From the NCBI RefSeq assembly GCF_000526515.1, contig NZ_JAGF01000001.1, forward strand, positions 2,232,001 to 2,296,000: a stretch of DNA of 64,000 nucleotides, written 5' to 3'. Position numbers and translations under genes: made by a program. Below the pieces are notes generated by a model. It was given only the letters and a program-made list of their open reading frames with translations, made no database searches and was not told the origin of the DNA. This document shows positions 1,240-61,287 of the stretch, piece after piece. Position 1 is the first letter of the stretch. Each line of letters starts with the position of its first letter. This DNA comes from Cellulomonas sp. KRMCY2 (GTDB lineage Bacteria > Actinomycetota > Actinomycetes > Actinomycetales > Cellulomonadaceae).

Positions 1240-1306
1240 AGCCGGCCACCGTCGGCGTGACGGCGGCCACCGTCCGCGTGCCGGCGGCCACCGTCGGCGT
1301 GACGGC
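1240..1306. repeat. 21-bp tandem repeat, three copies, at a convergent junction
   Basis: Unit approximates GGCCACCGTCGGCGTGACGGC. It fills most of the 109-bp gap between the pcrA stop and the convergent membrane-protein stop. No other feature is seen in the gap. Confidence 0.8.
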
Positions 1307-1324
1307 GAGCCCGCACGGGGCAGG

Positions 1325-1723
1325 TCAGAGCGAGCGAACGATGTGCGCCACCTGGTCGAGGCTGAGCATCGGCAGCTGACGACGGACCTCGCGTGCTGCG
1401 ACCAGCTCGCCCTGGGTGTCGCGCAGCACCCGGATCGCGTCCTGGTCGAGGGACTCCGCCGCGGCGTCGGGCGACCCGCCGAACGTCCTCGCGAGGTCAC
1501 GCGCCCGCCGGACCCGGTCGTGGCGGACCGAGAGCAGGCCGCCGGCCGCCGAGGCCAGCGCGAGCGCCGCCACGACCAGTGCCACCGCGGATCCTTGGGT
1601 CACGCCGGCCCACAGCAGGACGAGGGCGACGACGCCGAGGATCGCGGCGAGGACGAGCCGGGCCAGACGTCGTCGTGCTGCAGCTGCCGGATCGCTCGCG
1701 GAGGGTGTCCCGGGCATGGTCAC
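1325..1723 (-). CDS. small two-helix membrane protein, last gene of the T7SS-like operon
   Basis: 132 residues. A short basic N-terminus (RRRLARL) precedes two adjacent hydrophobic helices at about residues 22-62, and a charged C-terminal domain of about 70 residues probably faces the cytoplasm. The start ATG overlaps the stop of the upstream gene (ATGA, 1720-1723), so the two are translationally coupled. No family recognised. Its position after a WXG100-like substrate suggests an accessory membrane component, which is inference from context only. Confidence 0.7.
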   Translation of the reverse strand: MTMPGTPSASDPAAAARRRLARLVLAAILGVVALVLLWAGVTQGSAVALVVAALALASAAGGLLSVRHDRVRRARDLARTFGGSPDAAAESLDQDAIRVLRDTQGELVAAREVRRQLPMLSLDQVAHIVRSL

Positions 1724-2451
1724 ACGGCCCCCACGGGCCAGGCGCCGTTCGGGAAGGCGTCCGCTGCGGAGGCCGCACCCTTCATGGCGACGATCTGGGC
1801 CGTCTGCGCCGCGAGCAGGGCAGTCAGCGAGGCGATCGCCGCCCAGACCAGCGACCCGCTGACGGCCGCCTCCTCGAGGATGATGGCGACGCCGGCAGGC
1901 GAGAAGACGACGGAGCCGAAGGCCGCGATCGCAGCGGCGGCCGCAACGATGACCTTGACCAGGATGACGCCGAGCGCGACGTAGAAGGCGCAGCCCGCTG
2001 CCGCGCAGATGCCGAGGGACACGGCCATCGTGGTGGAGATCGACTGGATCTCGGCCGCCGCGGTCGGCTGGGTGGAGGTTGCGCGGGTGTAGGCGGTCGC
2101 GGCCTCACCGGTCCAGTCGTAGGCGGCGCGCAACGTGCTCGGGTGGGTGTTGCCCGCCACCGCCGACGCAGGCGCGCCGACCGAGGCGTGCCAGTCGTAC
2201 GCCTTCCAGAAGAACAGCGGCGGCGCGAGGACCCCCTCGAGGAGCTCGCCGAGCTTCTCCAGGAGCCACGAGCCGAACTCGATGAGCTTGTTGCCGCAGT
2301 CGACCAGGGCGTCGGCGACCCAGTCCATGACGTACCAGTGCGACGTGGCGCTGTTGATCGTCGGCGCCACGCGCCCGAGCTGGCCGGACAGGCTCGTCAT
2401 CCCGCTGTTGAGCTCGTTGATCACCGCGGTGTACTGCGCTTCGCTGAACAT
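1720..2451 (-). CDS. type VII secretion substrate-like protein with hydrophobic C-terminal half
   Basis: 243 residues. The N-terminal half is predicted helical and contains YDWTGEAATAY, matching the W-x-G-x-A-A-x-A-(Y/F) turn of WXG100-superfamily proteins. Two long hydrophobic stretches follow, at about residues 143-178 and 182-210, so it may be membrane-embedded or need a partner. ATG is chosen because AGGGGGAT lies six bases upstream; an adjacent in-frame GTG is possible. It sits between an EspC-like gene and a small membrane protein. Membership of the T7SS substrate class is inferred from the motif and neighbours; no ESX ATPase gene is in the window. Confidence 0.6.
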   Translation of the reverse strand: MFSEAQYTAVINELNSGMTSLSGQLGRVAPTINSATSHWYVMDWVADALVDCGNKLIEFGSWLLEKLGELLEGVLAPPLFFWKAYDWHASVGAPASAVAGNTHPSTLRAAYDWTGEAATAYTRATSTQPTAAAEIQSISTTMAVSLGICAAAGCAFYVALGVILVKVIVAAAAAIAAFGSVVFSPAGVAIILEEAAVSGSLVWAAIASLTALLAAQTAQIVAMKGAASAADAFPNGAWPVGAV

Positions 2452-2468
2452 CACGATCCCCCTGCGTG

Positions 2469-3495: not shown

Positions 3496-3574
3496 GCGTC
3501 CCCTGTCGTGTGCTGGTCCGTGGACAGGTTAGCGGGCTGGCCGTGATCATGGGGCGAATCGGACAACGGCGATC

Positions 3575-3611
3575 TCTCGATGTGAAGATGTCTGGCCGCC
3601 GCGGTTACGAT
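3575..3611 (+). promoter_or_regulatory. sucC upstream element and candidate -10
   Basis: TCTCGATGTGAAGA (3575-3588) is an imperfect palindrome sharing GATCTCTCGAYGT with a site upstream of icd. TACGAT at 3606-3611 is a plausible -10 for sucC. The rest of the 170-bp divergent gap shows nothing further. Confidence 0.4.
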
Positions 3612-3665
3612 CCCCGCGGGCGGCGCGTTCGTGCGCGGCAGCCGGACGACGGAAGGCGGAGCAGG

Positions 3666-4847: not shown

Positions 4848-4896
4848 GCCCCGCGACACCGACCCGCATCGACGCAGAGACGAGAGAACAGCAGAC

Positions 4897-5814: not shown

Positions 5815-5874
5815 CCAGGGCCGGCGCCTCCAGGGCCGGCGCCTCCGGGGCCGGCGCCTCCGGGGCCGGCGACA
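5815..5874. repeat. 15-bp tandem repeat, about four copies
   Basis: Unit CCAGGGCCGGCGCCT (later copies CCGGGGCCGGCGCCT), between sucD and the DUF6350 gene. Its reverse translation is a meaningless Gly-Ala-Pro string, so it is treated as non-coding. Confidence 0.85.
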
Positions 5875-7382: not shown

Positions 7383-8003
7383 TCAGCCGCCGCCCTGTCC
7401 GAGCGCCTGCTCGAGCCGCGCGGTCAGGGCGTCCTGGAACGCGGTCTCGCACCCCTCACGGACCGAGATGGTCAGCGCGCCGCGCAGGCAGTCCTGGCGG
7501 TCCACCTGGAGCGGCCACAGCGCGAGCATCGTCACCAGCGACAGCGACATGAGCGCGGCCAGCGCCAGTCCGACGGCAAGGACCGGGACGAGCGTGCCAC
7601 GCATCCCGGCCCGCCAGACCGTCCTGATCGCCCGGATGCCCACCACGATGGCGCCGATCGCGAACGCCAGGGCCGCTGCCTGCCACGGCAGGGTCAGCGA
7701 TGCCGTGAGCAGGGTCGCCAGGATGAGCAGGCCGAAGTGCATCACCTGGCGGCTCGCGGCGCGGACCGCCTCGGGATCCGCCGGACGCTGGGGCGCGCTG
7801 TCGGGCCCACCGGGCTGCCGGACGTCCGGACGTTGTTCGCCACCGGGGTGCCGGGCGTCCGGACCGGTTCCGCCGCCGGGGTGCCGGACGTCGGGACGTG
7901 CTCCGTCCGCCGGGGTGTCGGGCGACCCGGCCGGACCACCTGGTCCGGGGTCCGGGGAGCGGGCACCCGAGCCGCCCGGGGGCGGTGCGTACGGGTTGCT
8001 CAC
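7383..8003 (-). CDS. Pro/Gly-rich membrane protein of unknown function
   Basis: 206 residues. The N-terminal 80 residues are disordered, with three imperfect repeats of a PDVRHPGG/PDARHPGG type. Two or three hydrophobic helices follow at about residues 92-160 and then a soluble tail with two cysteines (DCLRG and EGCET). GTG start with AGGAG nine bases upstream. Convergent with the DUF6350 gene (25-bp gap) and divergent from purN. No family recognised. Confidence 0.65.
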   Translation of the reverse strand: MSNPYAPPPGGSGARSPDPGPGGPAGSPDTPADGARPDVRHPGGGTGPDARHPGGEQRPDVRQPGGPDSAPQRPADPEAVRAASRQVMHFGLLILATLLTASLTLPWQAAALAFAIGAIVVGIRAIRTVWRAGMRGTLVPVLAVGLALAALMSLSLVTMLALWPLQVDRQDCLRGALTISVREGCETAFQDALTARLEQALGQGGG

Positions 8004-8103: not shown

Positions 8104-8787
8104 GTGGCCCCGAACCCCCCTGCCCCCCGCCACGGCCGGCGGTCGTCCGACGCGACGGGCACGCCCGGACCGGCGCGCGTCGTCGTGCTCGTCTCGGGCG
8201 GGGGCTCCAACCTTGCCGCCCTGCTCGCCGCGCACGGCGACCCGGCCTACGGGGCCCGCGTCGTCGGCGTCGTGAGCGACACCGCGGACGCGGGCGGCCT
8301 GACCGTCGCGCGGGACGCAGGCGTCGCGACAGCCGTCGTCGCGCCGTCCGACTTCGCCGACCGGGCCGCCTGGGACGCGGCGCTCGCCGAGGCGGTGCGC
8401 GTGTTCGGCCCGTCCCTGGTGGTCAGCGCCGGGTTCATGCGGATCCTCGGTGCGCCCTTCCTCGACCGCTTCGGCGGCCGCTTCGGCGGCCGCGTGATCA
8501 ACACCCATCCCGCGCTGCTGCCGTCCTTCCCGGGGGCGCACGGTGTCCGTGACGCGCTCGCGCACGGCGTCAAGGTGACGGGCTGCACCGTGCACCTGGT
8601 CGACGCGGGTGTCGACACCGGCCCGATCATCGCCCAGCGGGCCGTGGAGGTCGCGGCCGACGACGACGAGGCGAGCCTGCACGAGCGGATCAAGACCGTC
8701 GAGCGGGCCCTGCTGGTCGACGTCGTCGGGCGGATCGCCCGTGGTGGGCTCGTCGTCGACGGGCGCCGGGCCCGGCTGCTCGGCTGA
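8104..8787 (+). CDS. purN: phosphoribosylglycinamide formyltransferase (GAR transformylase)
   Basis: Third step of purine synthesis: transfers formyl from 10-formyl-THF to glycinamide ribonucleotide. 227 residues including about 24 extra, poorly ordered N-terminal residues before the core VVVLVSGGGSNLAALL, the substrate phosphate loop. Catalytic Asn and His lie in INTHPALLPSFPG and the catalytic Asp in DAGVDTGPII. The GTG start follows TAGGGT by exactly six bases, suggesting a leaderless mRNA. Unlike purH and glyA it has no ZTP riboswitch. A 21-bp stretch spanning its stop codon is duplicated downstream. Confidence 0.95.
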   Translation: MAPNPPAPRHGRRSSDATGTPGPARVVVLVSGGGSNLAALLAAHGDPAYGARVVGVVSDTADAGGLTVARDAGVATAVVAPSDFADRAAWDAALAEAVRVFGPSLVVSAGFMRILGAPFLDRFGGRFGGRVINTHPALLPSFPGAHGVRDALAHGVKVTGCTVHLVDAGVDTGPIIAQRAVEVAADDDEASLHERIKTVERALLVDVVGRIARGGLVVDGRRARLLG

Positions 8788-8828
8788 GGTCGTGCTGCTC
8801 GGCCGGACCCGGCTGCTCGGCTGAGGTC
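8771..8828. repeat. 21-bp direct repeat spanning two stop codons
   Basis: CCCGGCTGCTCGGCTGAGGTC occurs at 8771-8791 and 8808-8828. Copy one contains the purN stop; copy two runs into the stop of the convergent epimerase gene. Confidence 0.85.
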
Positions 8829-9777
8829 AGCGGGCGGCGAGCGTCTCGGCGATGATCGTGGGCCACGGCGTCGGCGCCAGCCCGAGCACCTGCTGCGACC
8901 GGGTCGAGTCGAGCACGAAGGGCTCGGTGAACTGGTAGCCGATCCGATGGATCTCGCGCAGCATCGGCTGCCCGACGCCGATCAGGCGGACCAGCCACAT
9001 CGGCACGGGCGCGATCCGCGGTCGTGGTGCGCCGGCTGCCTCGGCGAATCGGGTGGCGAGCTCGCGGTAGGTCAGCGGTTCCGGCGTGGGGGCGTGCCAG
9101 GCGTGCCCCCACGCCGCCGGCTCGGTCGCCGCTGACGCGAGGGCGCAGGCGAAGTCCGGAAGGTAGGTCCAGCTGTGCGGCTGGTCGGCCGAGCCGATCG
9201 GGGCCAGCCGACGGCCGGCGAGCAGGGGGTCGAGCATGCGGGGTCCGGCGTGCGCATGCTGCTCGGCCTCGGGTCCGAGGTAGTCGCTCCCGCGGACCTC
9301 GGTGGCCCGCAGCCGGCCGGCGCGGTGCCGGGCCTGCGCCTCACGCCACATCGCGGCGCGCACGACACCCTTCGTCTCGGTGCTCGCGAGGGGCGAGTCC
9401 TCGCGCATGGGATACGTGCCGGCTCCGTAGGAGTAGAGGTTGCCGGCGATCACGAGGGGCGCCCCGGTGGCCTCGGCCGCCTGGAGCAGGGCCTCGGCCA
9501 CGGGCGGCCAGTCGGTCGCCCAGCGGTGGTAGGGCGGGTTCACGCAGTTGTAGAGCGCTTCGGCGCCGGCCGCCGACGCCGTGAGTGCCCGGCCGTCGGT
9601 GCCGTCGATGGCGGCATGGGTGATCGTGCCGGGGCCGGTGGAGCGGCCGGCGCGGCGATGGGCCGGCGTCGGCGCACCGGAACGGCTCAGGACGAGGACG
9701 TCGTGGCCGGTCGTGGCGAGCAGGCCGGCGAGGGTTCGACCGATCGGGCCCTTGCCCAGGATGACGTGGCGGGACAT
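8827..9777 (-). CDS. NAD(P)-dependent epimerase/dehydratase-like oxidoreductase
   Basis: 316 residues, extended short-chain dehydrogenase fold. The N-terminal ILGKGPIGRTLAGLLA is a GxGxxG-type dinucleotide loop and the middle region carries NLYSYG. The catalytic YxxxK of true epimerases is not evident: the expected segment reads SYGAGTYPMRED. It may therefore be an atypical, NmrA-like or sensor-type member. Divergent from a TetR gene across 120 bp holding four operator-like palindromes, so it is probably that repressor's target. Substrate unknown. Confidence 0.75.
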   Translation of the reverse strand: MSRHVILGKGPIGRTLAGLLATTGHDVLVLSRSGAPTPAHRRAGRSTGPGTITHAAIDGTDGRALTASAAGAEALYNCVNPPYHRWATDWPPVAEALLQAAEATGAPLVIAGNLYSYGAGTYPMREDSPLASTETKGVVRAAMWREAQARHRAGRLRATEVRGSDYLGPEAEQHAHAGPRMLDPLLAGRRLAPIGSADQPHSWTYLPDFACALASAATEPAAWGHAWHAPTPEPLTYRELATRFAEAAGAPRPRIAPVPMWLVRLIGVGQPMLREIHRIGYQFTEPFVLDSTRSQQVLGLAPTPWPTIIAETLAAR

Positions 9778-10880: not shown

Positions 10881-12512
10881 ATGTCTGCCAGCACCCGTCC
10901 CGCCCCCCTCCCCGCCGACGATGCCCGGCGCCCGGTCCGCCGGGCCCTGATCAGCGTCTACGACAAGGCCGGCCTGCCCGAGCTCGCCGCTGCGCTGCAC
11001 GACGCCGGTGTCGAGCTCGTCTCGACCGGCTCGACCGCCGCGACGATCGCCGCCGCCGGCGTGCCGGTGACCCCGGTCGAGGAGCTCACCGGCTTCCCCG
11101 AGTGCCTCGACGGCCGGGTCAAGACGCTGCACCCGCGCGTGCACGCGGGCATCCTCGCCGACACCCGCAGGCCCGAGCACCTCGCCCAGCTCGCCGAGCT
11201 GGGCGTCGAGACCTTCGAGCTCGTCGTGGTGAACCTCTACCCGTTCACGGCCACCGTGGCGTCGGGCGCAGGGCCGGACGAGTGCGTCGAGCAGATCGAC
11301 ATCGGCGGCCCCTCGATGGTCCGGGCCGCCGCGAAGAACCACCCGAGCGTCGCCGTCGTCGTCGACCCCACGGCGTACGACGACGTGATCGCCTCGGTCC
11401 GGGCCGGCGGCTTCACCCACGCGCAGCGCACCGCGCTCGCGGCGAAGGCCTTCGTGCACACCGCGACCTATGACGTCGCCGTCGCGTCCTGGATGGGCAA
11501 CGTCCTGACCACGACCGACGCCGTCGACGGCATCGCGACGGGCTTCCCGGCGTGGATCGGTGGCACCTGGGACCGGGCCGACGTGCTGCGCTACGGCGAG
11601 AACCCGCACCAGCGTGCCGCGCTCTACACGAACGGCTACCAGGCCGGCGGGCTGGCGACGGCCCGGCAGCTGCACGGCAAGGCGATGAGCTACAACAACT
11701 ACGTCGACGCCGACGCCGCGTGGCGGGCCGCGCACGACCACAGCGGTCCGGCCGTCGCGATCATCAAGCATGCGAACCCGTGCGGCATCGCCGTCGGCGC
11801 GGACATCGCCCAGGCCCACGCCAGGGCGCACGCGTGCGACCCGCTGTCGGCCTACGGCGGTGTCATCGCGGCGAACGGTGTGATCACGAAGGCCGCGGCC
11901 GAGCAGATCGCACCGGTCTTCACCGAGGTCGTCGTCGCGCCGGGCTTCGAGCCGGACGCCCTGGAGATCCTCACCGCGAAGAAGAACATCCGGCTGCTGG
12001 TCGTCGACACGCCGCCGACCGCGACGGTCGAGACCCGGCCGATCAGCGGCGGCCTGCTCGTCCAGGCGACCGACCGGATCGATGCCGTGACGCCCGACGG
12101 CGGCGACGACCCGGCGCGCTGGGTCCTGGCCGCCGGGGAGCCGGCCGACGCGGCCACGCTCGCGGATCTGGCCTTCGCCTGGCGCTCGGTCCGCGCGGTC
12201 AAGTCGAACGCGATCCTGCTGGCCTCCGACGGTGCGTCGATCGGGGTCGGGATGGGGCAGGTCAACCGGGTCGACTCGTGCCGGCTGGCCGTCGAGCGAG
12301 CCAACTCCGGCGACGTCGAGCGGGCCCGCGGGGCGGTCGCGGCCTCCGATGCGTTCTTCCCGTTCGCCGACGGCCTCCAGGTGCTCCTGGACGCCGGCGT
12401 GCGTGCCGTCGTGCAGCCCGGTGGCTCCGTCCGCGACGACGAGGTGATCGCCGCGGCGACCGCTGCCGGCGCAACCCTCTACCTCACCGGCACCCGCCAC
12501 TTCGCGCACTGA
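10881..12512 (+). CDS. purH: bifunctional AICAR transformylase/IMP cyclohydrolase
   Basis: Last two steps of IMP synthesis, using 10-formyl-THF. 543 residues, normal for PurH. The N-terminal cyclohydrolase domain begins [15 protein letters not shown] and continues [19 protein letters not shown], with VVNLYPF and ENPHQ-type segments. The C-terminal transformylase domain has the catalytic KH in [13 protein letters not shown] and [13 protein letters not shown] chosen at MSASTRP, after GACCCAGGAGC. Controlled by the ZTP riboswitch in its leader. Confidence 0.97.
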
Positions 12513-12536
12513 CCCTGCTGCCCCTGCTCCGCCCAC

Positions 12537-12578
12537 GACCTGTCGGACCCGCGGCCCAGACCTGTCGGACCTGCGGCC
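12537..12578. repeat. 20-bp direct repeat, two copies at 22-bp spacing
   Basis: GACCTGTCGGACCYGCGGCC at 12537-12556 and 12559-12578, in the convergent gap between purH and the flavoprotein gene. Confidence 0.8.
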
Positions 12579-13941: not shown

Positions 13942-14328
13942 GTGACGCCTGCCCCGCCGGAACCGGTCGAACGGCACACCGCCCCGGCACTCTGGCTCGT
14001 CGTGCTGGCCCTCGTCGGGATGACCCTGACGGCGGTCGCGGACGGTGCCCGGACCGCCGCAGCCGTGCTCGTGGCGACGCTGGTCGGCGCCGCGGCCGCC
14101 CGGCTGATCGGCCGCGGCCGCCATCCCGAGGGGATCGCGGTGCGCTCGACCTGGCTGGACGTGACGATCCTCCTGCTGCTCGCGCTGGGCATCGGGCTGC
14201 TGATGCTTGCGCCAGGCGTCGCCCCTGACCCTGCTGCGACCGGGTCCGTGACCGGGTCGGCAGCAGGATCAGCGGCAGGGTCAGCAGCGGGTCAGTACCG
14301 GTCGGGCACCGGCTCCCCGTCGTCCTGA
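13942..14328 (+). CDS. DUF3017-like three-helix membrane protein
   Basis: 128 residues with hydrophobic helices at about residues 15-32, 36-55 and 74-93, and a low-complexity Ser/Ala/Gly tail (repeats of GSAA). Size, topology and neighbourhood (near mdh) fit DUF3017, a family of unknown function often beside folD and mdh in actinobacteria. The GTG start follows TAGTCT by exactly six bases, a leaderless arrangement. Its last 37 bp overlap the convergent aquaporin gene, within repetitive sequence. Confidence 0.7.
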   Translation: MTPAPPEPVERHTAPALWLVVLALVGMTLTAVADGARTAAAVLVATLVGAAAARLIGRGRHPEGIAVRSTWLDVTILLLLALGIGLLMLAPGVAPDPAATGSVTGSAAGSAAGSAAGQYRSGTGSPSS

Positions 14329-24881: not shown

Positions 24882-25427
24882 GTGACCCAGACCTTCAACT
24901 CGCCTCCGGGCTGGCCGACGCCACCAGCAGGATGGACCCCACCGGAGGGCTGGCAGCCCGACCCGAGCTGGCCGCCGGCACCGGCCGACTGGCTGTGGTG
25001 GCGTGCCGATCCGCAGACCTACGCACCGGCCCACGCGCCCGCGTCGGCGACCCTGATACCGACCGGGGCGGTGCTCGCGCCGCCGTACGACGGCTTCGCC
25101 ACCGGCACGTCGCCGGCGGGCCCGGCTCACGCCTCAGGTGCGGCCTACGCCCCGGGTGCGGCCTACGCCCCGGGTGCGGCCTACGCCCCGGCGGGCGCCA
25201 TGTACGCCCCGGGGGTCTCGCCGTTCGCGGTGGGGCCGTCGGCCGAGCGACAGGCAGGCAAGCGCGCGATGCTCATCGGTGGTGGGATCGCAGCAGCCGG
25301 GCTCGCGGTCACCGGGCTGACCTACGCCTTCGCGGAACCGGGTGGCAGGTTCACGGTGCTGTGGGGTGCGGTCCTGTGGGGGATCGTCGCGCTCGTCCGG
25401 GGAGCGGTGCAGTACCGCCGCGGCTGA
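24882..25427 (+). CDS. Pro-rich small membrane protein with YAPGA repeats
   Basis: 181 residues. The N-terminal half is Pro/Trp/Ala-rich (PPGWPTPPAGWTPPEGW), followed by three exact GAAYAP repeats encoded by an 18-bp tandem repeat near 25140-25190. Two C-terminal transmembrane helices lie at about residues 130-175. Proline-rich N-termini with a short membrane anchor are common in actinobacteria; no function can be assigned. GTG start is six bases after TACTGT, a leaderless pattern. Confidence 0.7.
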   Translation: MTQTFNSPPGWPTPPAGWTPPEGWQPDPSWPPAPADWLWWRADPQTYAPAHAPASATLIPTGAVLAPPYDGFATGTSPAGPAHASGAAYAPGAAYAPGAAYAPAGAMYAPGVSPFAVGPSAERQAGKRAMLIGGGIAAAGLAVTGLTYAFAEPGGRFTVLWGAVLWGIVALVRGAVQYRRG

Positions 25428-33298: not shown

Positions 33299-33317
33299 CC
33301 GACCCGGACCGGCCGGC

Positions 33318-33385
33318 GCCGCGGACTGCTCGGTGCCGCGGACTGCTCGGTGACCCGGACTGCTCGGTGCCCCGGACTGCTCAGC
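33318..33385. repeat. 17-bp tandem repeat, four copies
   Basis: Unit GCCGCGGACTGCTCGGT, first two copies identical, the last two diverged. The purU stop codon (33381-33383) is inside the fourth copy. Confidence 0.88.
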
Positions 33386-37330: not shown

Positions 37331-37470
37331 GGTGGAGCGTTCGGTCCGTGAGTGGAGCGTCCGGTCCGTGAGTGGAGCGTCCGGTCCGTGAGTGGAGCGT
37401 CCGGCCTGTGAGTGGAGCGTCCGGCCCGTGAGTGGAGCGTTCGGCCCGTGAGTGGAGCGTTCGAGCCTGA
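37331..37470. repeat. 20-bp tandem repeat array, seven contiguous copies
   Basis: Unit AGTGGAGCGTCCGGTCCGTG with few substitutions, no spacers. An inverted near-copy CCGAACGCTCCATT lies at 37491-37504, able to pair with copies containing AGTGGAGCGTTCGG. It fills most of the 296-bp gap from folD to the exonuclease gene; nothing else is seen there. Confidence 0.92.
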
Positions 37471-38410: not shown

Positions 38411-38490
38411 GGGGCTCACGGTCGGTGGGGCTCACGGTCGGTGGGGCTCACTGGCGGCGGTGCTCACGCGCGGTGGGGCTCATGGGCGGG
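38411..38490. repeat. 16-bp tandem repeat, two exact and three degenerate copies
   Basis: GGGGCTCACGGTCGGT at 38411-38442 twice, then diverged copies up to 38490. The stop codon of the convergent MFS gene is inside the fourth copy. Confidence 0.8.
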
Positions 38491-40449: not shown

Positions 40450-40450
40450 G

Positions 40451-40485
40451 CTGCTCGGCCGGTGCGGCTGCTCGGCCGGTGCGCC
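40451..40485. repeat. 17-bp direct repeat, two copies
   Basis: CTGCTCGGCCGGTGCGG then CTGCTCGGCCGGTGCGC, starting two bases after the ArsR stop at a convergent junction. Confidence 0.8.
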
Positions 40486-50451: not shown

Positions 50452-50594
50452 GCGGACATCGTAAGCGGGCGTCGCGGATCCGGTACGGGACCGACCACAC
50501 CGGTGGCTGTGGGCTGCGCCACGGAGAGACTCCCGGACCGACCGACCGACCGACCGGCGCGCGGGCGTCGGTGCTGGTGTCTACGCTCCGGGAC

Positions 50595-51392
50595 ATGGAC
50601 ATCGAGCACGGCACGTACCTGATCGCGATCCGCGAGGAGTCCGAGCGCTTCCTCGAGGCGCTCGCCGGCATCCCCGGTGACGCACCCGTCCCCTCGTGCG
50701 CCGGCTGGACGGCGGCCGACCTGCTCTGGCACCTCACCGACGTCCAGTACTCCTGGGCGCAGGTGGTGAGCACAGGTGTGACGGGTGACGACGTCGCCGA
50801 ACGACCGCGACCGACCGACGTCGCCGGACTGCGAGCGCTCGCGGCCCGGTCCGGAACCGAGCTGCTCGCCGCCCTCGCCGCCCATGACCCGCACGAGCCC
50901 TGCTGGTCGTGGCACGAGGACGGCGGCACCGTCGGCTGGGTGGCCCGTCGGCAGGCGCACGAGGCGCTGATCCATCGGGTCGACGCCGACCTCACGGCCG
51001 GCCGGGCAGCCGGGCCCCCGTCGGCCGAGCTGGCCGCGGACGGCGTCGACGAGCTGCTGCGGGTCATGCTGGACGGCGTACCGGACTGGGGCACCTTCAC
51101 GCCGGACGGCGTCACGGTGGCGATCGCCTGCGACAACGTCGACGCCTCCTGGGTGCTGGCCCTGGGCAGGTTCACCGGGACCAGCGCCACATCGGGCACG
51201 ACCTACGACCTGGATGCCGCCGCGGTGCTCGACGAGGACGATGGCGGGGCGGACGACCTGACGCTCAACGGCTCGGCCTGGGACCTCGACCGGTGGCTCT
51301 GGGGCCGGGGCACGGCGGACGCGCTGACGATCTCGGGCGACCGCGCGCTGCTGGAGCGGCTGCGTGCGCTGGTGACCGAGGCGACCCAGTAG
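50595..51392 (+). CDS. maleylpyruvate isomerase/mycothiol-dependent family protein
   Basis: 265 residues, DinB-like fold. CAGWTAADLLWHLTDVQYSWA has the metal-binding His of the MDMPI N-terminal domain, and VARRQAHEALIHRVDA a second His/Glu set; a C-terminal sterol-carrier-like domain follows. Such proteins use mycothiol, the actinobacterial thiol. ATG chosen because TACGCT lies seven bases upstream; eight extra residues are possible from 50571. Actual substrate unknown. Its stop codon is within a duplicated 18-bp unit. Confidence 0.82.
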   Translation: MDIEHGTYLIAIREESERFLEALAGIPGDAPVPSCAGWTAADLLWHLTDVQYSWAQVVSTGVTGDDVAERPRPTDVAGLRALAARSGTELLAALAAHDPHEPCWSWHEDGGTVGWVARRQAHEALIHRVDADLTAGRAAGPPSAELAADGVDELLRVMLDGVPDWGTFTPDGVTVAIACDNVDASWVLALGRFTGTSATSGTTYDLDAAAVLDEDDGGADDLTLNGSAWDLDRWLWGRGTADALTISGDRALLERLRALVTEATQ

Positions 51393-51416
51393 GTCAGAGC
51401 GACCCAGTAGGTCAGC
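51381..51416. repeat. 18-bp direct repeat carrying both stop codons of a convergent pair
   Basis: GCGACCCAGTAGGTCAGA then GCGACCCAGTAGGTCAGC. The first copy contains the rightward stop (TAG 51390-51392), the second the leftward stop (TCA 51412-51414). Confidence 0.9.
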
Positions 51417-51969
51417 GCGGGGCGTCCTGGCGGGCCGTGCGCTCACCCGCCCGGTCGGGCTGCTGGTCCTCGCGGTCCGCCTCGCGCTCGGACTCCCGCT
51501 CAGCCGACATCTCCTGCAGGAGGTCACGCAGCTCGGACCGGACGAAGTCCCTGGTGGCGACGTCGCCGAGGGCGATGCGCAGGGCGGCCATCTCGCGCGC
51601 GAGGTACTCGGTGTCCGCGAGCGAGCGGTCCGCGCGCTGGCGGTCCTGCTCGGCAGCCACCCGGTCGCGGTCGGTCTGCCGGCTCTGTGCGAGCAGGATC
51701 AGTGGCGCCGAGTACGACGCCTGCAGCGAGAGCATGAGCGTCAGTGCCGTGAATCCCAGCGCGGCCTTGTCGAACCGCAGGTCGTCGGGGCCCCAGGTGT
51801 TCCAGGACAGCCACGTGAGACAGAAGACGGTCATGTAGAGGAGGAAGCGCGGCGTGCCCATGAACCGGGCGATGCCCTCGGACACCTGCCCGAAGACGTC
51901 GGGCCGGAACTTGGGCCGTCGGACGAGCGACCGGCGGGCGTCGCGGGGGAGGTCGAGTCGGTCAGCCAC
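51412..51969 (-). CDS. DUF1003-family membrane protein
   Basis: 185 residues. FGQVSEGIARFMGTPRFLLYMTVFCLTWLSWNTWG and the second helix FTALTLMLSLQASYSAPLILLAQSRQTDRDR match DUF1003, with two transmembrane helices. A long Arg/Glu/Asp-rich C-terminal cytoplasmic coil follows. Overlaps the MgtE-like gene's stop by 8 bp, so they are one operon; this pairing is common in actinobacteria. Function unknown. Confidence 0.9.
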   Translation of the reverse strand: MADRLDLPRDARRSLVRRPKFRPDVFGQVSEGIARFMGTPRFLLYMTVFCLTWLSWNTWGPDDLRFDKAALGFTALTLMLSLQASYSAPLILLAQSRQTDRDRVAAEQDRQRADRSLADTEYLAREMAALRIALGDVATRDFVRSELRDLLQEMSAERESEREADREDQQPDRAGERTARQDAPR

Positions 51970-55238: not shown

Positions 55239-55271
55239 CCGTCCGGGCGTTCGTGACCCGGCCGGACCGGT

Positions 55272-55307
55272 GGCCGGCCTGCTGCGCCTCAGCGCAGGAG
55301 GCCGGCC
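55272..55307. terminator. long bidirectional hairpin at a convergent junction
   Basis: GGCCGGCCT/AGGCCGGCC and CTGCGC/GCGCAG arms, CTCA loop. The right arm overlaps the last codons of the aminopeptidase gene. It can terminate both converging transcripts. Confidence 0.75.
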
Positions 55308-56872
55308 ATCCAGGCCTCGACGTCCTCGGGTCGCCGGGGCAGGGCGGCGGACAGGTTCTCGTTGCCCTCGGCCGTGATCAGGACGTCGTCCTCGATGCGG
55401 ATGCCGATCCCGCGGTACTCCGGTGGCACGGCGAGGTCGTCGGCCTTGAAGTACAGGCCGGGCTCGATCGTGAAGACCATGCCCGGCTCCAGCACGGCGT
55501 CGAGGTACATCTCGCGCCGCGCCTGGGCGCAGTCGTGCACGTCGAGGCCCAGGTGGTGGCTCGTGCCGTGCACCATCCAGCGGCGGTGGAACTGCCCGTC
55601 GGGGTCGAGCGACTCCTGCGCCGTGCCCGGCAGCAGGCCCCACTCGGCCAGGCGTGCGGCGATCACCGCCATCGCGGCCGCGTGCACGTCGCGGAACCTG
55701 CTCCCGGGCCGGGCGACGGCGAACGCGGCGTCGGCGGCGTCGAGGACGGCGGTGTAGATCCGTCGCTGGACCTCGGTGAACGCACCGTCGACCGGCAGCG
55801 TCCTGGTGACGTCCGCGGTGTAGAGGGACTCGACCTCGACGCCGGCGTCGACCAGCACGAGGTCGCCGGCGCGCACCTGACCGTCGTTGCGGATCCAGTG
55901 CAGCGTCGTCGCGTGCTCGCCTGCGGCGGCGATCGTCTCGTACCCGACGGCGTTGCCCTCCTCGCGGGCCGTGCCGTCGAAGGCAGCCTCGATGACGCGC
56001 TCGCCGCGGGTGTGACCGGTGGCCCGGCCCAGGTTGCGCACCACACGCTCGAACCCGACGACTGTCGCCCCGACGGCCGCGCGCAGCTGGGCGACCTCGT
56101 GCTCGTCCTTGACCAGTCGCAGCTCGCTCAGCGCCTCGGCCAGCTCGGCGTCGGCCACGGCCCTCTGCGCGTCGGTCAGGTCCGAGTCGGCCCGCGCCGT
56201 CTCGACCGCCTCGGACGTCGCCGCGTCGGCATCCGGGACGATCCGCACCCGCACGCCCCCGGGGCCGACGTCCTTGGACAGGGCCGCCGCCAGCCCGTCG
56301 AGCGCGGCCGTGGTGATGCCGGTGAGCACGGCGAGGTCGTCGAGCGTCGGGCGGGCGCCGACCCAGAACTCGCCGTAGCGCGAGTCGGCGAAGAACTCCT
56401 CGGTGTCCCGGCCGGACATCGGCCGGAAGTACAGGACCGCCTCGTGGCCGTCGTCGACGGGGTGCAGCACCAGGACGGCGTCGGGCTCCTGGTCGGTACC
56501 GAGCCCGGTGAGGTGGGCGAAGGCGGAGTGCGGACGGAACCGGTAGTCCGTGTCGTTCGACCGCGTCACCAGGGGGCCGGCGGGGACCACGAGCCGCTCG
56601 CCCGGGAACATCTCCGAGATCCGGTCACGACGGGCTGCGGCGAACGGCGCCGCGGCGGCCGGACCGGCGTCGTGGGCCGGACGGTCGGCCCAGCGGTCGG
56701 CGATGAACGCCCGGAACGCGGCCGACGTCGGTCGCTGCGAGCGGTTCGAGCCGCGGTCGGCCAGCGCCTGCGCCGGCTGGGCGGCGGCGCCGGTCCCGGG
56801 CATCGGGGCGGTCCCGGTCGTCGTCGGTACCTGGTCGTCGGTGGTCCTGTCGATGGACCGGTCGTCTGCCAT
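55289..56872 (-). CDS. pepP: Xaa-Pro aminopeptidase (aminopeptidase P)
   Basis: Metallopeptidase removing the N-terminal residue before proline. 527 residues, pita-bread fold with an N-terminal creatinase-like domain preceded by about 50 disordered residues. Metal ligands are recognisable in LVLVDAGVEVESLYTADVTRT (two Asp), GTSHHLGLDVHD (His), FTIEPGLYF (Glu) and RIEDDVLIT (Glu). ATG at 56872 is used; another ATG nine bases upstream is equally possible. Divergent from the PHP gene. Confidence 0.93.
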   Translation of the reverse strand: MADDRSIDRTTDDQVPTTTGTAPMPGTGAAAQPAQALADRGSNRSQRPTSAAFRAFIADRWADRPAHDAGPAAAAPFAAARRDRISEMFPGERLVVPAGPLVTRSNDTDYRFRPHSAFAHLTGLGTDQEPDAVLVLHPVDDGHEAVLYFRPMSGRDTEEFFADSRYGEFWVGARPTLDDLAVLTGITTAALDGLAAALSKDVGPGGVRVRIVPDADAATSEAVETARADSDLTDAQRAVADAELAEALSELRLVKDEHEVAQLRAAVGATVVGFERVVRNLGRATGHTRGERVIEAAFDGTAREEGNAVGYETIAAAGEHATTLHWIRNDGQVRAGDLVLVDAGVEVESLYTADVTRTLPVDGAFTEVQRRIYTAVLDAADAAFAVARPGSRFRDVHAAAMAVIAARLAEWGLLPGTAQESLDPDGQFHRRWMVHGTSHHLGLDVHDCAQARREMYLDAVLEPGMVFTIEPGLYFKADDLAVPPEYRGIGIRIEDDVLITAEGNENLSAALPRRPEDVEAWMAGLLR

Positions 56873-57798: not shown

Positions 57799-58415
57799 CC
57801 GCCCTCGTCGACGCCAGGTTCTTCGCCGAGGTCTTCATCACGCTGTTCGTGATCATGGACCCGCCCGGCACGGTGCCGGTCTTCCTCGGCCTGACCAGCA
57901 CGATGACCGGCCGGCAGCGCAACCGCGCGGCGCGGCAGGCGATCCTGGTGGCGTTCGGCGTGATCGTGTCGTTCGCGCTCTTCGGCCAGGAGCTGCTCAG
58001 CTACATGCACATCTCGCTGCCGGCGCTCCAGGCATCCGGTGGCCTGCTGCTGCTCCTGGTGGCGATGGAGCTGCTCACCGGCAAGATGGAGGAGCCCCAG
58101 CCGTCCGGGAACGCCGCGGTCAACGTGGCCCTCGTGCCGCTGGGTACGCCGCTGCTGGCCGGGCCCGGCGCGATCGTCGCGACCATGGTCTTCGTGCAGC
58201 GCGCCCACACGGCGGAGCACTGGATCTCCCTCGCGCTGGGCGTCATCGCCGTACACCTGACCCTGTGGTTCGCGATGCGCTTCGCGAACGTGATCCACAA
58301 GGTGCTCAAGGACAGCGGCACGACCCTGGTCACCCGGATCGCCGGGCTGCTGCTCGCAGCGATCGCGGTCCAGCTCGTCGGTGACGCGGTCCGTGCGTTC
58401 ATCGAGGCCGGCTGA
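57795..58415 (+). CDS. MarC-family integral membrane protein
   Basis: 206 residues, six predicted helices. FITLFVIMDPPGTVPVFLGLT and PLGTPLLAGPGAIVATMVF are the MarC-family halves with conserved PxG motifs. Function in antibiotic resistance was not confirmed for the family; it is regarded as an uncharacterised membrane protein. Start overlaps the PHP gene's stop. Confidence 0.92.
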   Translation: MTALVDARFFAEVFITLFVIMDPPGTVPVFLGLTSTMTGRQRNRAARQAILVAFGVIVSFALFGQELLSYMHISLPALQASGGLLLLLVAMELLTGKMEEPQPSGNAAVNVALVPLGTPLLAGPGAIVATMVFVQRAHTAEHWISLALGVIAVHLTLWFAMRFANVIHKVLKDSGTTLVTRIAGLLLAAIAVQLVGDAVRAFIEAG

Positions 58416-58504
58416 GCCACCGGACGACCGGGCCACCGGACGACCGAGCCGCCCCACCGGATCGGTGGAGCGGCTCGGTCGGTGCGTCGGTGCGTCGGTG
58501 CGTC
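58416..58504. repeat. 16-bp x2 and 8-bp x3 tandem repeats at a convergent junction
   Basis: GCCACCGGACGACCGG at 58416 and 58432 directly after the marC stop, then GGTGCGTC three times at 58481-58504, the last reaching into the helicase stop codon. Confidence 0.82.
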
Positions 58505-60278
58505 AGGCGTCGGTCGCGGTGGTGCCGCCGTCGGCGCCGGCCCCGCCCCGGGTGCGACGCCGGCTGCGTGACCGTCGCTTGCCGCCCTCGCCGGACGACG
58601 CACCCTCTGCTGGTGGGCCGGCCTGGCTCGTGGTCGGCTCGGACGACTGTGCGGTGCCGGCCGCACCGCGGGTGCGCTCGCCGGAGCGCTCGCCCCGACC
58701 GCCGCGCTCGTCGCGCGCGCCGCGGGCTCCCGAACCGCCGGCTCCGCCGCGGCCACCGCCGCCCCCGGATCCGCCGTGGCCGTGCTCGCCGTGGCCGCCG
58801 CCCGACCGGTGCCCGTCGCGGCCGGAGCCGTCGGGCCTCGGCGCTGCGCGCGTGGTGTGCTTGCCGGTCTCGCCGAGGTCCTCGAGCGACTCCGCGCTGA
58901 GCCCCGCGCGAACCTGCGCGGACCGCGGCAGGCGGCCCTTGGTGTTCTCGGGGATGTCCAGCTCGGTGAACAGGTGGGCCGAGTTCGAGTAGGTCTCGAC
59001 CGGCTCGGGGTAGCCGAGGTCGAGTGCCTTGTTGATCAGGCCCCAGCGCGGCATGTCGTCCCAGTCGACGAACGTCACGGCGGTACCCGTCTTGCCGGCG
59101 CGCCCGGTGCGCCCGGTGCGGTGCAGGTAGGTCTTCTCGTCCTCGGGGCACTGGTAGTTGACCACGTGCGTGACGTCGTCGACGTCGATGCCGCGAGCCG
59201 CCACATCGGTGGCGACGAGCACGTCGATCTTGCCGCTGCGGAAGGCCCGCAGGGCCTGCTCACGCGCACCCTGACCGAGGTCGCCGTGGATGGCGCCCGA
59301 CGCGAAGCCGCGCTCGGCGAGATCGTCGGCCACCTTGGCGCAGGTCCGCTTGGTCCGTGCGAAGACGATCGTCAGACCGCGGCCGCGTGCCTGCAGCATC
59401 CGGGCCAGCACCTCGACCTTGTCCATGGCGTGCGCGCGGTAGACGACCTGCTTGATCGCCTTGAGCGTCGCGCCGCCGTCGTCCGGGTCCTGCGCGCGGA
59501 TGTGCGTGGGCTGCGTCATGTACCGGCGGGCCATCGCCACGACGGCGCCCGGCATGGTCGCCGAGAACAGCATGGTCTGGCGGGACGCCGGTGTGCGGGA
59601 CAGCAGCTTCTCGACATCCGGCAGGAAGCCGAGGTCGAGCATCTCGTCGGCCTCGTCGAGCACGACGGTGCGTGCCCGGGACAGGTCGAGGAAGCCCTGG
59701 TTCATCAGGTCGATCATGCGGCCGGGGGTGCCGACGACGACCTCGACGCCACGGGCGAGCGCCTCGACCTGCGGCTCGTAGGCGCGGCCGCCGTAGACCT
59801 GCAGCACCCGGACACTGCGTCGCGTGGAGGCCGTGGCCAGGTCACCGGCGACCTGGACGGCGAGCTCGCGGGTCGGCACGACCACGAGCGCCTGCGGCTT
59901 GCCGGGCGCGGGCAGGGAGCTGAAGCCCTCCTCGTCAGGTGCGAGCACGCCGTTGAGCAGCGGGACCCCGAAGCCGAGGGTCTTGCCCGTGCCGGTCTTG
60001 GCCTGGCCGATGATGTCGTGGCCGGCCAGGGCGACCGGCAGCGTCATCGCCTGGATCGGGAACGGGTTGCTGATCCCCACGTCGGCCAGGGCCTGGACGA
60101 TCTCGGGGCGGATGTCGTAGTCGGCGAACGACGGGTCACGTGCCTGGATGGTCTGCGCATCGGCACTCGACGCGGCAGCGGACAGGTCCTGCGGCTCGGT
60201 CGGCTGCGACCTGGTGGCAGCGACGTCGATGGTCTCGTCGGTATCCGGCTGAGAGCCGGGATCGGTCGTGGTGGTCAT
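58503..60278 (-). CDS. DEAD-box RNA helicase
   Basis: 591 residues. Q motif FPIQAMTLP, motif I AKTGTGKT, Ia PTRELAVQV, II DEAD in VVLDEADEMLDLGF, III SAT, and VI HRTGRTGRAG are all present, so it is an active-looking helicase of the RhlE/CshA kind. The C-terminal 130 residues are Arg/Gly/Ser-rich for RNA contact. ATG has AGGTAGGA upstream. The 235-bp gap to the divergent gene includes a long leader; TAGGAT (complement of 60472-60477) may be its -10. Confidence 0.95.
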   Translation of the reverse strand: MTTTTDPGSQPDTDETIDVAATRSQPTEPQDLSAAASSADAQTIQARDPSFADYDIRPEIVQALADVGISNPFPIQAMTLPVALAGHDIIGQAKTGTGKTLGFGVPLLNGVLAPDEEGFSSLPAPGKPQALVVVPTRELAVQVAGDLATASTRRSVRVLQVYGGRAYEPQVEALARGVEVVVGTPGRMIDLMNQGFLDLSRARTVVLDEADEMLDLGFLPDVEKLLSRTPASRQTMLFSATMPGAVVAMARRYMTQPTHIRAQDPDDGGATLKAIKQVVYRAHAMDKVEVLARMLQARGRGLTIVFARTKRTCAKVADDLAERGFASGAIHGDLGQGAREQALRAFRSGKIDVLVATDVAARGIDVDDVTHVVNYQCPEDEKTYLHRTGRTGRAGKTGTAVTFVDWDDMPRWGLINKALDLGYPEPVETYSNSAHLFTELDIPENTKGRLPRSAQVRAGLSAESLEDLGETGKHTTRAAPRPDGSGRDGHRSGGGHGEHGHGGSGGGGGRGGAGGSGARGARDERGGRGERSGERTRGAAGTAQSSEPTTSQAGPPAEGASSGEGGKRRSRSRRRTRGGAGADGGTTATDA

Positions 60279-60513
60279 GTCCTACCTCGTAGGTCGGTCC
60301 CACGGGGCCACACGCATCGGCGCGACGAGAGCTTCGTCGCACCGGGAGCGGGCCGCGCCGCGGGCGAAGGCCGGCAGCCGATCGTGGAAGGCGCCGCCCG
60401 GGCGCTGGGCTCGAATGTGCCTGCGCGGGCGAGGATGTCGGGACGACCGGTCAACCGATGTACCCGCCCATCCTAACGGACCGCCGCCTGCGGACGGGCG
60501 ATAGCCTGGCCGG

Positions 60514-61245
60514 ATGACCAGTGCACCGCCGGCGGACCCTCTCGAGCACACCGCATCGGACGAGGTGACCGACGACGCGGACCTGACGCCGACCGCCCTC
60601 GGGCACAGCCTCGCGGTGCTCGGGATGATCGCGTTCAGCGAGCTCGCCACCTTCTCCCGCCTGGCCGCCGACGCGGCCGCAGCCCCGTCCCTCGACCAGC
60701 GGCTCGAGCTCTCCCGGCTCGCCGGGGTCGCGCTGGACCGGCTCAGTCGGGTCGGCGCACGGGTGGTCGAGCTGGGCGGGGAGCTCCAGCCCGTGATGGC
60801 CCCGTTCGCCGGGGTCCTGGTCGAGTTCGACCAGCGCACCGTTCCGAGCACGTGGGGGGAGCGGCTGCTCAAGGGCTACGTCGGCTACGGCGTGTCCGAC
60901 GACTTCGGCCGGATCATCGCGAAGGCGCTCGACCCGAGGACCGGCGACCTGGTGGCCACGGTGCTCTCCGACGACGGGCACTCGCGGTTCGTCGTCGAGT
61001 CGCTCGCCCAGGCAGCGACCGTCGACGCGACGCTCGCGTCACGACTGGCCCTGTGGGGACGGCGTCTGGTGGGCGAGGCGCTCGGCGTCGTGCAGGGCGT
61101 GATCGCCGACCACCCCGAGCTCGCCGACCTGCTCGACCTGGCGATGGCGGACGTGCCCGGGAACGGGGACGTCCAGCAGCGGTTGTTCGCGGAGCTGACC
61201 GCCGAGCACAGCCGCCGGATGGAGCGCCTCGGGCTGACACCCTGA
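60514..61245 (+). CDS. ferritin-like (MiaE_2-type) protein
   Basis: 243 residues, mostly helical. SLAVLGMIAFSELATFSRLAADA supplies the first helix with its Glu. The family resembles MiaE_2, putative tRNA-hydroxylase-like proteins of actinobacteria. Later helices show few of the expected metal-binding E-x-x-H pairs (DDGHSRFVVESLA is the best candidate), so hydroxylase activity is uncertain. ATG is six bases after TAGCCT, leaderless. Sits between the helicase and DUF3107 as in mycobacteria. Confidence 0.78.
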   Translation: MTSAPPADPLEHTASDEVTDDADLTPTALGHSLAVLGMIAFSELATFSRLAADAAAAPSLDQRLELSRLAGVALDRLSRVGARVVELGGELQPVMAPFAGVLVEFDQRTVPSTWGERLLKGYVGYGVSDDFGRIIAKALDPRTGDLVATVLSDDGHSRFVVESLAQAATVDATLASRLALWGRRLVGEALGVVQGVIADHPELADLLDLAMADVPGNGDVQQRLFAELTAEHSRRMERLGLTP

Positions 61246-61247
61246 GG

Positions 61248-61287
61248 CGTTCGCAGCCCGGCCGCGCCGTTCGCAGCCCAGCCGCGT
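61248..61287. repeat. 20-bp direct repeat, two copies
   Basis: CGTTCGCAGCCCGGCCGCGC and CGTTCGCAGCCCAGCCGCGT, two bases after the ferritin-like gene's stop, at the convergent junction with DUF3107. Confidence 0.85.

What the first reader, a model, noticed from the sequence alone, without database searches (positions are those of the whole stretch)
1240..61287. Unrelated short tandem duplications mark most convergent gene junctions
I count 13 convergent junctions. Nine have a 16-21 bp unit repeated 2-4 times in the gap or across the stops (1240, 8771, 12537, 33318, 38411, 40451, 51381, 58416, 61248). A tenth (14292-14328) is an overlap inside a repetitive tail. Two of the other three are too short (about 25 bp), and one has a long hairpin instead. 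Repeat sequences differ at each site, so this is not one mobile repeat family. Stop codons often lie inside a copy: both stops at 51381, both at 8771-8829, purU at 33381. Of twelve divergent gaps only one or two show a short duplication (11 bp at 62331, a GACC microsatellite near 50537). Repeated local duplication at gene ends looks selected or mechanistically driven, perhaps by transcription collision, slippage, or a role in ending converging transcripts.
Basis: seen in the sequence. Interest (0 to 1): 0.74.

Follow-up and report, generated by a model that had tools for sequence, protein, structure and literature searches.

The report
Tandem duplications where genes end
In this actinobacterium and some of its relatives, short stretches of DNA (mostly 15 to 25 letters) have been copied side by side again and again just past the ends of genes, most often where two genes run into each other tail to tail, probably because copying slips there and nothing removes the result.

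Summary
All nine arrays are in the sequence, far beyond chance, with unrelated units. The genome is Actinotalea-like (4.5 Mb). In 1.18 Mb of it outside the window, tandem repeats sit in 20 of 68 convergent gaps of 30-150 bp, 15 of 235 codirectional and 0 of 51 divergent gaps. The window is an outlier: 8 of 9 convergent gaps of at least 30 bp, against 23 of 106 elsewhere; its flanks are ordinary. Congeners, some other genera of the family and Nonomuraea show the same bias; seven other actinobacteria sampled and Shinella do not. Orthologous junctions carry unrelated repeats in different species, and the 18-bp duplication at 51381 is single-copy in a congener, so arrays arise repeatedly and recently from local DNA. 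They are not strictly convergent: codirectional 3' flanks have them too, at a similar rate per free gene end, and convergent gaps have two such ends and almost no conservation. Hairpins, Ku and stop codons inside copies do not explain them. Best reading: slippage-type duplications, at a rate that differs between lineages, survive in unconstrained 3' flanks. A positive-supercoiling/gyrase hotspot at gene ends is the main live rival. A terminator role is not supported.

The parts
1243..1307 (.). 21-bp unit x3.1 in the convergent gap 1215|1325 (UvrD/PcrA-like helicase gene / small ORF)
   Evidence: TRF score 116; gap anatomy; Pfam of the left gene; no orthologous pair in the fetched congener stretches
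8772..8828 (.). 19-bp unit x3.1 spanning both stops, convergent gap 8787|8827 (formyltransferase-like / epimerase-like)
   Evidence: TRF score 72; orthologous gap is 2 bp in congener G014 and 17 bp in G018, both without a repeat
12531..12578 (.). 22-bp unit x2.1 in the convergent gap 12512|12612 (AICARFT/IMPCHase, purH-type / pyridine nucleotide-disulphide oxidoreductase)
   Evidence: TRF score 82; congener G018 has an unrelated 24-bp x2 array at the same junction, G008, G014 and G009 none
14254..14295 (.). weak 12-bp x3.6 array at the end of the DUF3017-like gene, overlapping convergent pair 14328|14292
   Evidence: TRF score 56, below the threshold used for counting; congener G018 has a 30-bp x2.2 array here
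33303..33382 (.). 17-bp unit x4.7 filling the convergent gap 33298|33381 (BPD_transp_2-type transport permease / purU-type formyltransferase)
   Evidence: TRF score 111; G008 and G014 have unrelated 19-bp arrays here, G018 a weak one (score 58), and G002, G011, G009 none scoring >=50
38411..38489 (.). 16-bp unit x4.9 running into the 3' end of the right gene, convergent gap 38400|38464
   Evidence: TRF score 109; the pair overlaps by 13 bp in G008 and G014, without a repeat
40450..40483 (.). perfect 17-bp x2 starting directly after the stop, convergent gap 40449|40517
   Evidence: TRF score 68; unrelated arrays in G002 (score 66) and, weaker, G008 (55); none in G014
51381..51419 (.). 18-bp unit x2.2 containing both stops, convergent gap 51392|51412 (mycothiol maleylpyruvate isomerase-like / DUF1003)
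   Evidence: TRF score 71; single copy with a 1-bp gap in congener G008; the joined form found in 1 of 81 family genomes, this one
58414..58450 (.). 16-bp unit x2.3 at and after the marC-type stop, convergent gap 58415|58503
   Evidence: TRF score 67
58478..58514 (.). 8-bp unit x4.8 on the other side of the same gap, into the DEAD-box helicase gene end
   Evidence: TRF score 60; period below the range used for counting
58442..58480 (.). long hairpin between the two arrays of gap 58415|58503, candidate bidirectional terminator
   Evidence: fold
61248..61286 (.). 20-bp unit x2.0 starting 2 bp after the stop, convergent gap 61245|61315 (MiaE-like / DUF3107)
   Evidence: TRF score 71; congener G014 has an unrelated 26-bp x3.1 array, G018, G008, G002 and G011 none
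55269..55311 (.). hairpin across the right-hand stop in convergent gap 55238|55289, which has no tandem array
   Evidence: fold
5815..5871 (.). 15-bp unit x3.8 in a codirectional gap, 30 bp after the stop of the CoA-ligase gene
   Evidence: TRF score 100; Pfam
37332..37460 (.). 20-bp unit x6.4 (95% match) in a codirectional gap, 25 bp after the stop of the folD-type gene
   Evidence: TRF score 216, strongest array in the window; Pfam
63432..63495 (.). 15-bp unit x4.2 in a codirectional gap, 15 bp after the DUF3152 gene stop
   Evidence: TRF score 77; Pfam

Best explanation
The arrays are young minisatellites born in place. In this lineage a slippage-type copying error now and then duplicates 15-25 bp of local sequence, and further slippage adds copies. 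Inside genes such events usually break the reading frame, and upstream of genes they disturb promoters and ribosome sites, so they are lost there. In the flank downstream of a stop codon they do no harm, and a copy that contains the stop leaves the protein unchanged, so they persist for a while and then decay or are replaced. A short convergent gap is two such flanks laid together with no start signal in it, so it collects about twice as many per junction and shows them most clearly. Shown here: excess over chance, distribution by junction class, recurrence at the same junction in different species with unrelated units, a pre-duplication state in a congener, near absence of sequence conservation in convergent gaps, and a tendency of array-rich lineages to have more repeats inside genes too. 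Inferred: slippage as the birth process, absence of function, and that the lineage difference is a difference in birth rate.
For: Excess over shuffles: 43 vs 0.4 of 149 convergent, 46 vs 1.0 of 488 codirectional, 9 vs 0.5 of 215 divergent gaps. Graded distribution: pooled family, outside the window, gap corrected for repeat length <150 bp: conv 41/226, co 29/820, div 1/102. Codirectional gaps of 250-600 bp have 9-10% coverage in the first 50 bp after the stop, against 0-2% in the last 50 bp before the start. Rates per free 3' end are alike in short convergent and long codirectional gaps. Constraint runs the other way: flanks alignable between species (z>3) in 1/38 convergent tests, about 40% of divergent (n=80) and codirectional 5' flanks (n=19), 21% of codirectional 3' flanks (n=19) and 80% of short codirectional gaps (n=25); with repeat-bearing pairs removed, conv 0/6, co 3' flanks 0/8, co 5' flanks 3/8, co short 10/12, div 31/88. 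Single-copy state of the 51381 unit in G008 (gap 1 bp); 33298|33381 carries unrelated arrays in three species. Copies are similar (median 90%, n=53). Lineages with convergent arrays also have more repeats inside genes (11 lineages 5.5-23.3 vs 11 lineages 2.3-12.7 per 100 kb, Mann-Whitney p 0.005, grouped after the fact, G146 with only 20 kb left out; rank correlation 0.49, p 0.02 without G146, 0.30, p 0.17 with it).
Against: Constraint alone should act in all actinobacteria, but the eight genomes give conv 2/80 (corrected gap <150 bp), seven of them 0/68, and three of those seven are as G+C-rich as the family; so a lineage factor is needed, and its cause is unknown. Array density in convergent gaps falls with gap length (2.8, 1.26, 0.14 per kb for corrected gaps 0-60, 60-150, 150-600; p 0.02 for the first two), while codirectional density is flat (0.49, 0.46, 0.44); uniform birth without constraint predicts a flat convergent density. 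Likewise only 1/66 ends of convergent gaps >=250 bp have an array near the stop, against 10/120 for codirectional; missed genes in long convergent gaps may account for this but were not checked. The homology expected of slippage is unproven: 9 perfect two-copy cases, 3 of 9 with >=3 bp against 9% expected, too few. The window's own excess (8/9) is explained only as chance plus selection of the window.
Confidence: 0.5

Rival explanations
1. Mutational hotspot at gene ends: positive supercoiling ahead of RNA polymerase collects downstream of genes and is trapped between convergent genes. Gyrase cleavage or fork stalling there leads to small tandem duplications.
For: The order convergent > codirectional 3' flank > 5' flank/divergent matches published maps: gyrase occupancy higher between convergent genes and downstream of termination sites in M. 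tuberculosis (PMC5433769, passages seen), and positive supercoils at 3' ends trapped by convergent transcription (PMC8360656, passages seen). Density in convergent gaps falls with gap length.
Against: No relation to a crude codon-usage score of the flanking genes (0.267 in 47 gaps with arrays vs 0.260 in 168 without, p 0.83). Supercoiling should exist in the lineages without arrays too. From recall, gyrase leaves a 4-base stagger, which does not explain 15-25-bp units.
Confidence: 0.22
2. Selected function: the arrays end, insulate or space converging transcripts (terminators, Rho sites or spacers), and selection keeps array-bearing gaps although units differ.
For: Same junctions acquire arrays independently in several species. 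Of the 41 array-bearing convergent gaps with corrected length <150 bp in the pooled family, 17 would be under 30 bp without the repeats, so arrays do push gene ends apart.
Against: Hairpin strength does not differ between convergent gaps with and without arrays (39% of 46 vs 39% of 93 with z>2). Array frequency does not rise in the shortest corrected gaps (9/39, 8/51, 14/56, 5/35, 5/25), and pairs with corrected overlap have none (0/20). In congeners 24 of 37 orthologous convergent gaps list no array of score >=50 (counted).
Confidence: 0.12
3. Repair of staggered breaks by end joining (Ku/LigD) with fill-in, giving duplications as long as the overhang.
For: A Ku gene is present in this genome and in all six congeners examined.
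Against: Ku is also present in all seven array-poor genomes, and not found in G146, which has an array in 1 of 2 convergent gaps. Some perfect duplications have extra flanking homology (3 of 9, few cases).
Confidence: 0.1
4. One dispersed or mobile repeat family (REP/BIME- or MIRU-like) that inserts between convergent genes.
For: Position between convergent genes recalls such elements (recall).
Against: Units differ at every site; the 51381 joined unit occurs in 1 of 81 family genomes; a 200-bp query round it finds only two partial matches of 30-32 bp elsewhere in the genome, both outside the array.
Confidence: 0.02

Closest known systems
Bacterial minisatellites / VNTR loci, such as the rnc-fpg1 region of M. 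tuberculosis (PMC2734929, passages seen)
   Same: Locally unique tandem arrays that appear in one lineage where relatives have a much shorter gap (a few bases in most); that array starts 40 bp after a stop codon.
   Different: That locus lies between codirectional genes and is linked to expression of the next gene; here the bias is to 3' flanks and convergent gaps, across the genome, with no sign of function.
Tandem repeats of Borg elements (PMC9879509, passages seen)
   Same: Units unique to each locus, with examples of 18-21 bp, formed recently and independently from local sequence, variable between close relatives, highly genome-specific.
   Different: Borg repeats are perfect, A-rich, and about half lie inside genes with unit lengths divisible by three; here they are GC-rich, mostly imperfect and placed at gene ends.
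REP/BIME and similar dispersed palindromic repeats (partly recalled; PMC2884548 passages)
   Same: Intergenic, often clustered, a source of small length differences between strains.
   Different: Those share one sequence family and are palindromic; these share no sequence.
Positive-supercoiling and gyrase zones between convergent genes (PMC8360656 and PMC5433769, passages seen)
   Same: Same ranking of junction classes: convergent and 3' ends high, divergent low.
   Different: Those are protein and topology maps; the passages that I saw do not report duplications.

Membership tests
Minisatellite / VNTR | Head-to-tail array of a unit of about 10-60 bp | tested here: met
   TRF; nine convergent arrays score >=60
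Minisatellite / VNTR | Copy number varies between strains of one species | not testable with these tools
   Genomes held are one per species; between species one copy in G008 against 2.2 here at 51381
REP/BIME or other dispersed repeat family | Same sequence at many places in the genome | tested here: not met
   Unit sequences differ at all sites; unit 51381 sought in 81 family genomes, found once; whole-genome DNA search done for one junction only
REP/BIME or other dispersed repeat family | Palindromic unit | tested here: inconclusive
   Stem strength of whole gaps is not higher with arrays; single units were not scored
Intrinsic terminator | GC-rich hairpin followed by a T tract | tested here: not met
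   T tract beside the best stem in 0% of 154 convergent gaps of the family pool, window included; hairpins not enriched with arrays
Intrinsic terminator | Transcript 3' ends at the site | not testable with these tools
   No RNA data
Duplication by replication slippage | Short homology flanking the duplicated unit | tested here: inconclusive
   Perfect two-copy cases n=9; 3/9 with >=3 bp extra against 9% expected
Duplication by Ku-dependent end joining | Occurs only where Ku is present | tested here: not met
   No Ku match in G146, which has an array in 1 of 2 convergent gaps (20 kb sampled, so one case); seven Ku-positive genomes have 0/68

The most novel reading that the evidence does not exclude
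Some actinobacterial lineages have a duplication process directed to gene ends, driven by the positive supercoiling and gyrase activity trapped where transcription converges. It keeps inserting 15-25-bp local copies there, pushing overlapping convergent genes apart, so that tandem arrays are a genomic record of transcriptional collision.
Probability: 0.2. Interest if true: 0.75.

Novelty: new variant of a known kind. Interest (0 to 1): 0.45.

Why it matters
Bacterial minisatellites are usually treated as scattered typing markers (recall). Here their position follows gene orientation, in some lineages and not in others. That makes a simple question testable: do gene ends mutate more, or are they merely more forgiving? 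It also gives a way in which overlapping convergent genes become separated, and it warns against reading repeats between convergent genes as regulatory elements. Ten full-text searches of the held library listed no paper whose title or abstract opening describes this bias; the lists were capped and most subscription papers are not held.

Tried and rejected
Regional effect: the window lies near the middle of the chromosome coordinates, so I asked whether the repeats cluster there. The 316 kb around the window are ordinary (conv gaps >=30 bp 6/28). A XerCD-site pattern written from memory gave no clear terminus.

Hairpin-driven slippage: rejected as the main driver, since stems are no stronger with arrays (mean z 2.13 with, 2.93 without) and array-poor outgroups have similar stems (38% of 32 vs 36% of 154 with z>2).

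Ku/end joining: does not separate lineages (Nonomuraea and Shinella not tested). Expression proxy by codon usage: no difference, but a poor proxy in GC-rich genomes. Stop codons inside copies: below random expectation. Unit length modulo 3: no bias in convergent arrays (17/16/20 for remainders 0/1/2). Microhomology: too few perfect cases. Shinella sp. PSBB067: 0 of 127 gaps (30-600 bp) with an array. Nonomuraea gerenzanensis: 10 of 17 convergent gaps of 30-150 bp, so the trait is not confined to the family.

Rows dropped or regrouped: G148 and G138 were left out of the family pool, because the caller trained on GC-rich DNA called too few genes there (G+C 0.546 and 0.645; between them 0/1 convergent gaps of 30-150 bp). 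G062, although of the same family, was counted with the outgroups (0/10); with it the family pool is 41/236. The seven 'array-poor' outgroups were grouped after seeing the result; all eight give 2/80. G146 was left out of one test, and the result with it is given. The window itself is left out of pooled rates where stated. The pooled class tally was wrong (a missing class filter in my script) and is not used; one search replaces it.

Gene calls come from my own codon-model caller, not checked against an annotation. Long convergent gaps may hide missed genes.
Full report
WHAT WAS CLAIMED AND WHAT IS THERE. TRF finds all nine listed arrays with scores of 67 to 116, and the weaker tenth at 14254-14295 with score 56. 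My gene calls give 13 convergent, 32 codirectional and 13 divergent junctions; 9 of the 13 convergent ones carry an array of score >=60. Neighbouring genes are mostly recognisable by Pfam, and 51 of 59 called genes have a match in at least one of six congeners. The three convergent junctions without an array have gaps of 25, 28 and 50 bp, the last with a long hairpin.

CHANCE. Dinucleotide shuffles of the gaps plus 25 bp on each side (own genome including the window, and six congeners; gaps 30-600 bp) give 0.4 array-bearing gaps of 149 convergent, 1.0 of 488 codirectional and 0.5 of 215 divergent. Observed: 43, 46 and 9.

IS THE WINDOW TYPICAL? Relatives named by a protein scan are Actinotalea species, and three congener contigs have the same lengths as the records of A. 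subterranea, A. ferrariae and Actinotalea sp. K2 found there, so I take the genus to be Actinotalea. I sampled 1.176 Mb of the same genome outside the window. With gaps of at least 30 bp, arrays are at 23/106 convergent, 37/395 codirectional and 8/149 divergent junctions; with gaps of 30-150 bp, 20/68, 15/235 and 0/51. The excess at convergent junctions holds for score limits from 50 to 100. The window (8/9) is far above the rest of its genome (binomial 3.6e-5; about 0.0025 over 70 windows), while the 316 kb around it are ordinary (6/28). Most units are short: 38 of 53 convergent arrays of the pooled family have periods of 15-24 bp (periods of 10-60 bp were looked for, and at two copies the score limit of 60 excludes units under 15 bp).

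RELATIVES. Six congeners (400 kb) give conv 10/35, co 4/62 and div 0/27 at 30-150 bp. Six other genera of the family give 8/27, 1/52 and 0/18. Within these, G009 (0/13), G143 (0/8) and G152 (0/6) have none at corrected gaps <150 bp.

ORTHOLOGOUS JUNCTIONS. At 51392|51412 the 18-bp unit, duplicated here across both stops, is present once in G008, with a 1-bp gap. At 33298|33381 three species (this one, G008, G014) have unrelated arrays of score >=60, G018 a weak one (58), and G002, G011 and G009 none. At 38400|38464 the genes overlap by 13 bp in G008 and G014 but are 63 bp apart here, nearly all of it array. At 12512|12612, 14328|14292, 40449|40517, 58415|58503 and 61245|61315 congeners carry arrays of their own or none. 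In all, 24 of 37 orthologous convergent gaps compared list no array of score >=50. Not every window junction could be compared: 1215|1325 and 25427|25456 have no orthologous pair in the fetched stretches. So arrays arise anew from local sequence and turn over between species 76-81% identical in this region.

CONVERGENT OR JUST 3' END? Short convergent gaps (30-100 bp) have 11-26% of positions in arrays, against 0-5% in codirectional 3' flanks of the same gap length. But many short codirectional gaps are probably inside operons. In codirectional gaps of 250-600 bp the first 50 bp after the stop have 9-10% coverage, and the last 50 bp before the start 0-2%. Counting arrays with midpoints within -25 to +60 bp of a stop gives, for convergent gaps, 60/392 ends (<100 bp), 12/90 (100-250) and 1/66 (>=250), where one array often counts for both ends; and for codirectional gaps 15/694, 14/246 and 10/120. 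Short convergent and long codirectional gaps are thus about equal per free gene end, and convergent junctions look like two 3' flanks added together. Against this: array density per base falls with gap length in convergent gaps but is flat in codirectional gaps, and long convergent gaps are poor; whether these hide missed genes was not checked.

CONSTRAINT. Between the window and congeners, flank sequences are alignable (z>3) in 1/38 convergent tests, about 40% of 80 divergent tests, 42% of codirectional 5' flanks and 21% of codirectional 3' flanks (n=19 each), and 80% of short codirectional gaps (n=25). Leaving out pairs with arrays: 0/6, 31/88, 3/8, 0/8 and 10/12. Arrays therefore lie where sequence is least conserved.

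WHAT DOES NOT EXPLAIN THEM. Hairpins: 39% of convergent gaps with (n=46) and without (n=93) arrays have strong stems; codirectional gaps with arrays have fewer strong stems than those without (10-12% vs 25-27%). Stops inside copies: 31/51 overlaps against 41.6 expected. Expression proxy, gene length: no difference. Ku: present in array-poor genomes.

LINEAGES. Eight other actinobacterial genomes (800 kb; one of them, G062, of the same family) give conv 1/38, co 7/167 and div 1/38 at 30-150 bp, and 2/80 convergent at corrected gaps <150 bp; the two are in G098, which also has 7/23 at codirectional 3' ends. In longer codirectional gaps (150-600 bp) these genomes have arrays as often as the family (18/100, against 18/133, 6/40 and 5/39), so what they lack is chiefly the gene-end share. 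Nonomuraea gerenzanensis is rich (conv 10/17, co 6/52, div 1/22), Shinella has none (0/8, 0/46, 0/4). Lineages with convergent arrays tend to have more tandem repeats inside genes as well (p 0.005 without G146, grouped after the fact; rank correlation 0.49, p 0.02 without and 0.30, p 0.17 with G146), which fits a lineage-wide difference in duplication rate, though the ranges overlap. The comparison 41/226 against 0/68 (p 1.2e-5) also uses a group formed after the fact. The cause of the lineage difference is unexplained.

MECHANISM. Best-supported: slippage-type duplication from local sequence with a lineage-dependent rate, kept where nothing selects against it. The birth step is inferred; the microhomology test is underpowered. 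Main rival: a hotspot from positive supercoiling and gyrase at gene ends, which matches published maps (PMC5433769, PMC8360656; passages seen).

NOVELTY. Each array is an ordinary minisatellite. Lineage-specific arrays between genes are known, as at rnc-fpg1 in M. tuberculosis (PMC2734929, passages seen), and locus-unique recent arrays are known from Borgs (PMC9879509, passages seen). The orientation bias was not described in the titles or abstract openings listed by my ten searches.

Noticed in passing
window 37332-37460: Strongest tandem array of the window (20 bp x6.4, 95% match) lies in a codirectional gap 25 bp after the folD-type stop, not at a convergent junction.
   Followed up: partly
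window 7807-7921: 33-bp x3.5 array that probably lies inside the longer reading of the minus-strand gene at 7383-8003 (two of three congener orthologues are longer than my first call), so an in-frame coding repeat and not a divergent-gap repeat.
   Followed up: partly
window 25071-25427: Doubtful ORF with no Pfam match and no orthologue in the fetched congener stretches; holds an 18-bp x3.5 array at 25129-25191.
   Followed up: no
window 58442-58480: A long hairpin, perhaps a two-way terminator, is flanked on both sides by different tandem arrays.
   Followed up: no
L178-L182 and L187 (Nonomuraea gerenzanensis): Tandem arrays in 10 of 17 convergent gaps of 30-150 bp, with units of 14-41 bp there, often longer than in Actinotalea; possibly a better organism for studying the effect.
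   Followed up: partly
L148-L152 (G098, 9.2 Mb genome of the same class): Arrays at 7 of 23 codirectional 3' ends (gaps >=100 bp), more than in the window's genome (13 of 232), with 2 of 12 convergent gaps.
   Followed up: no
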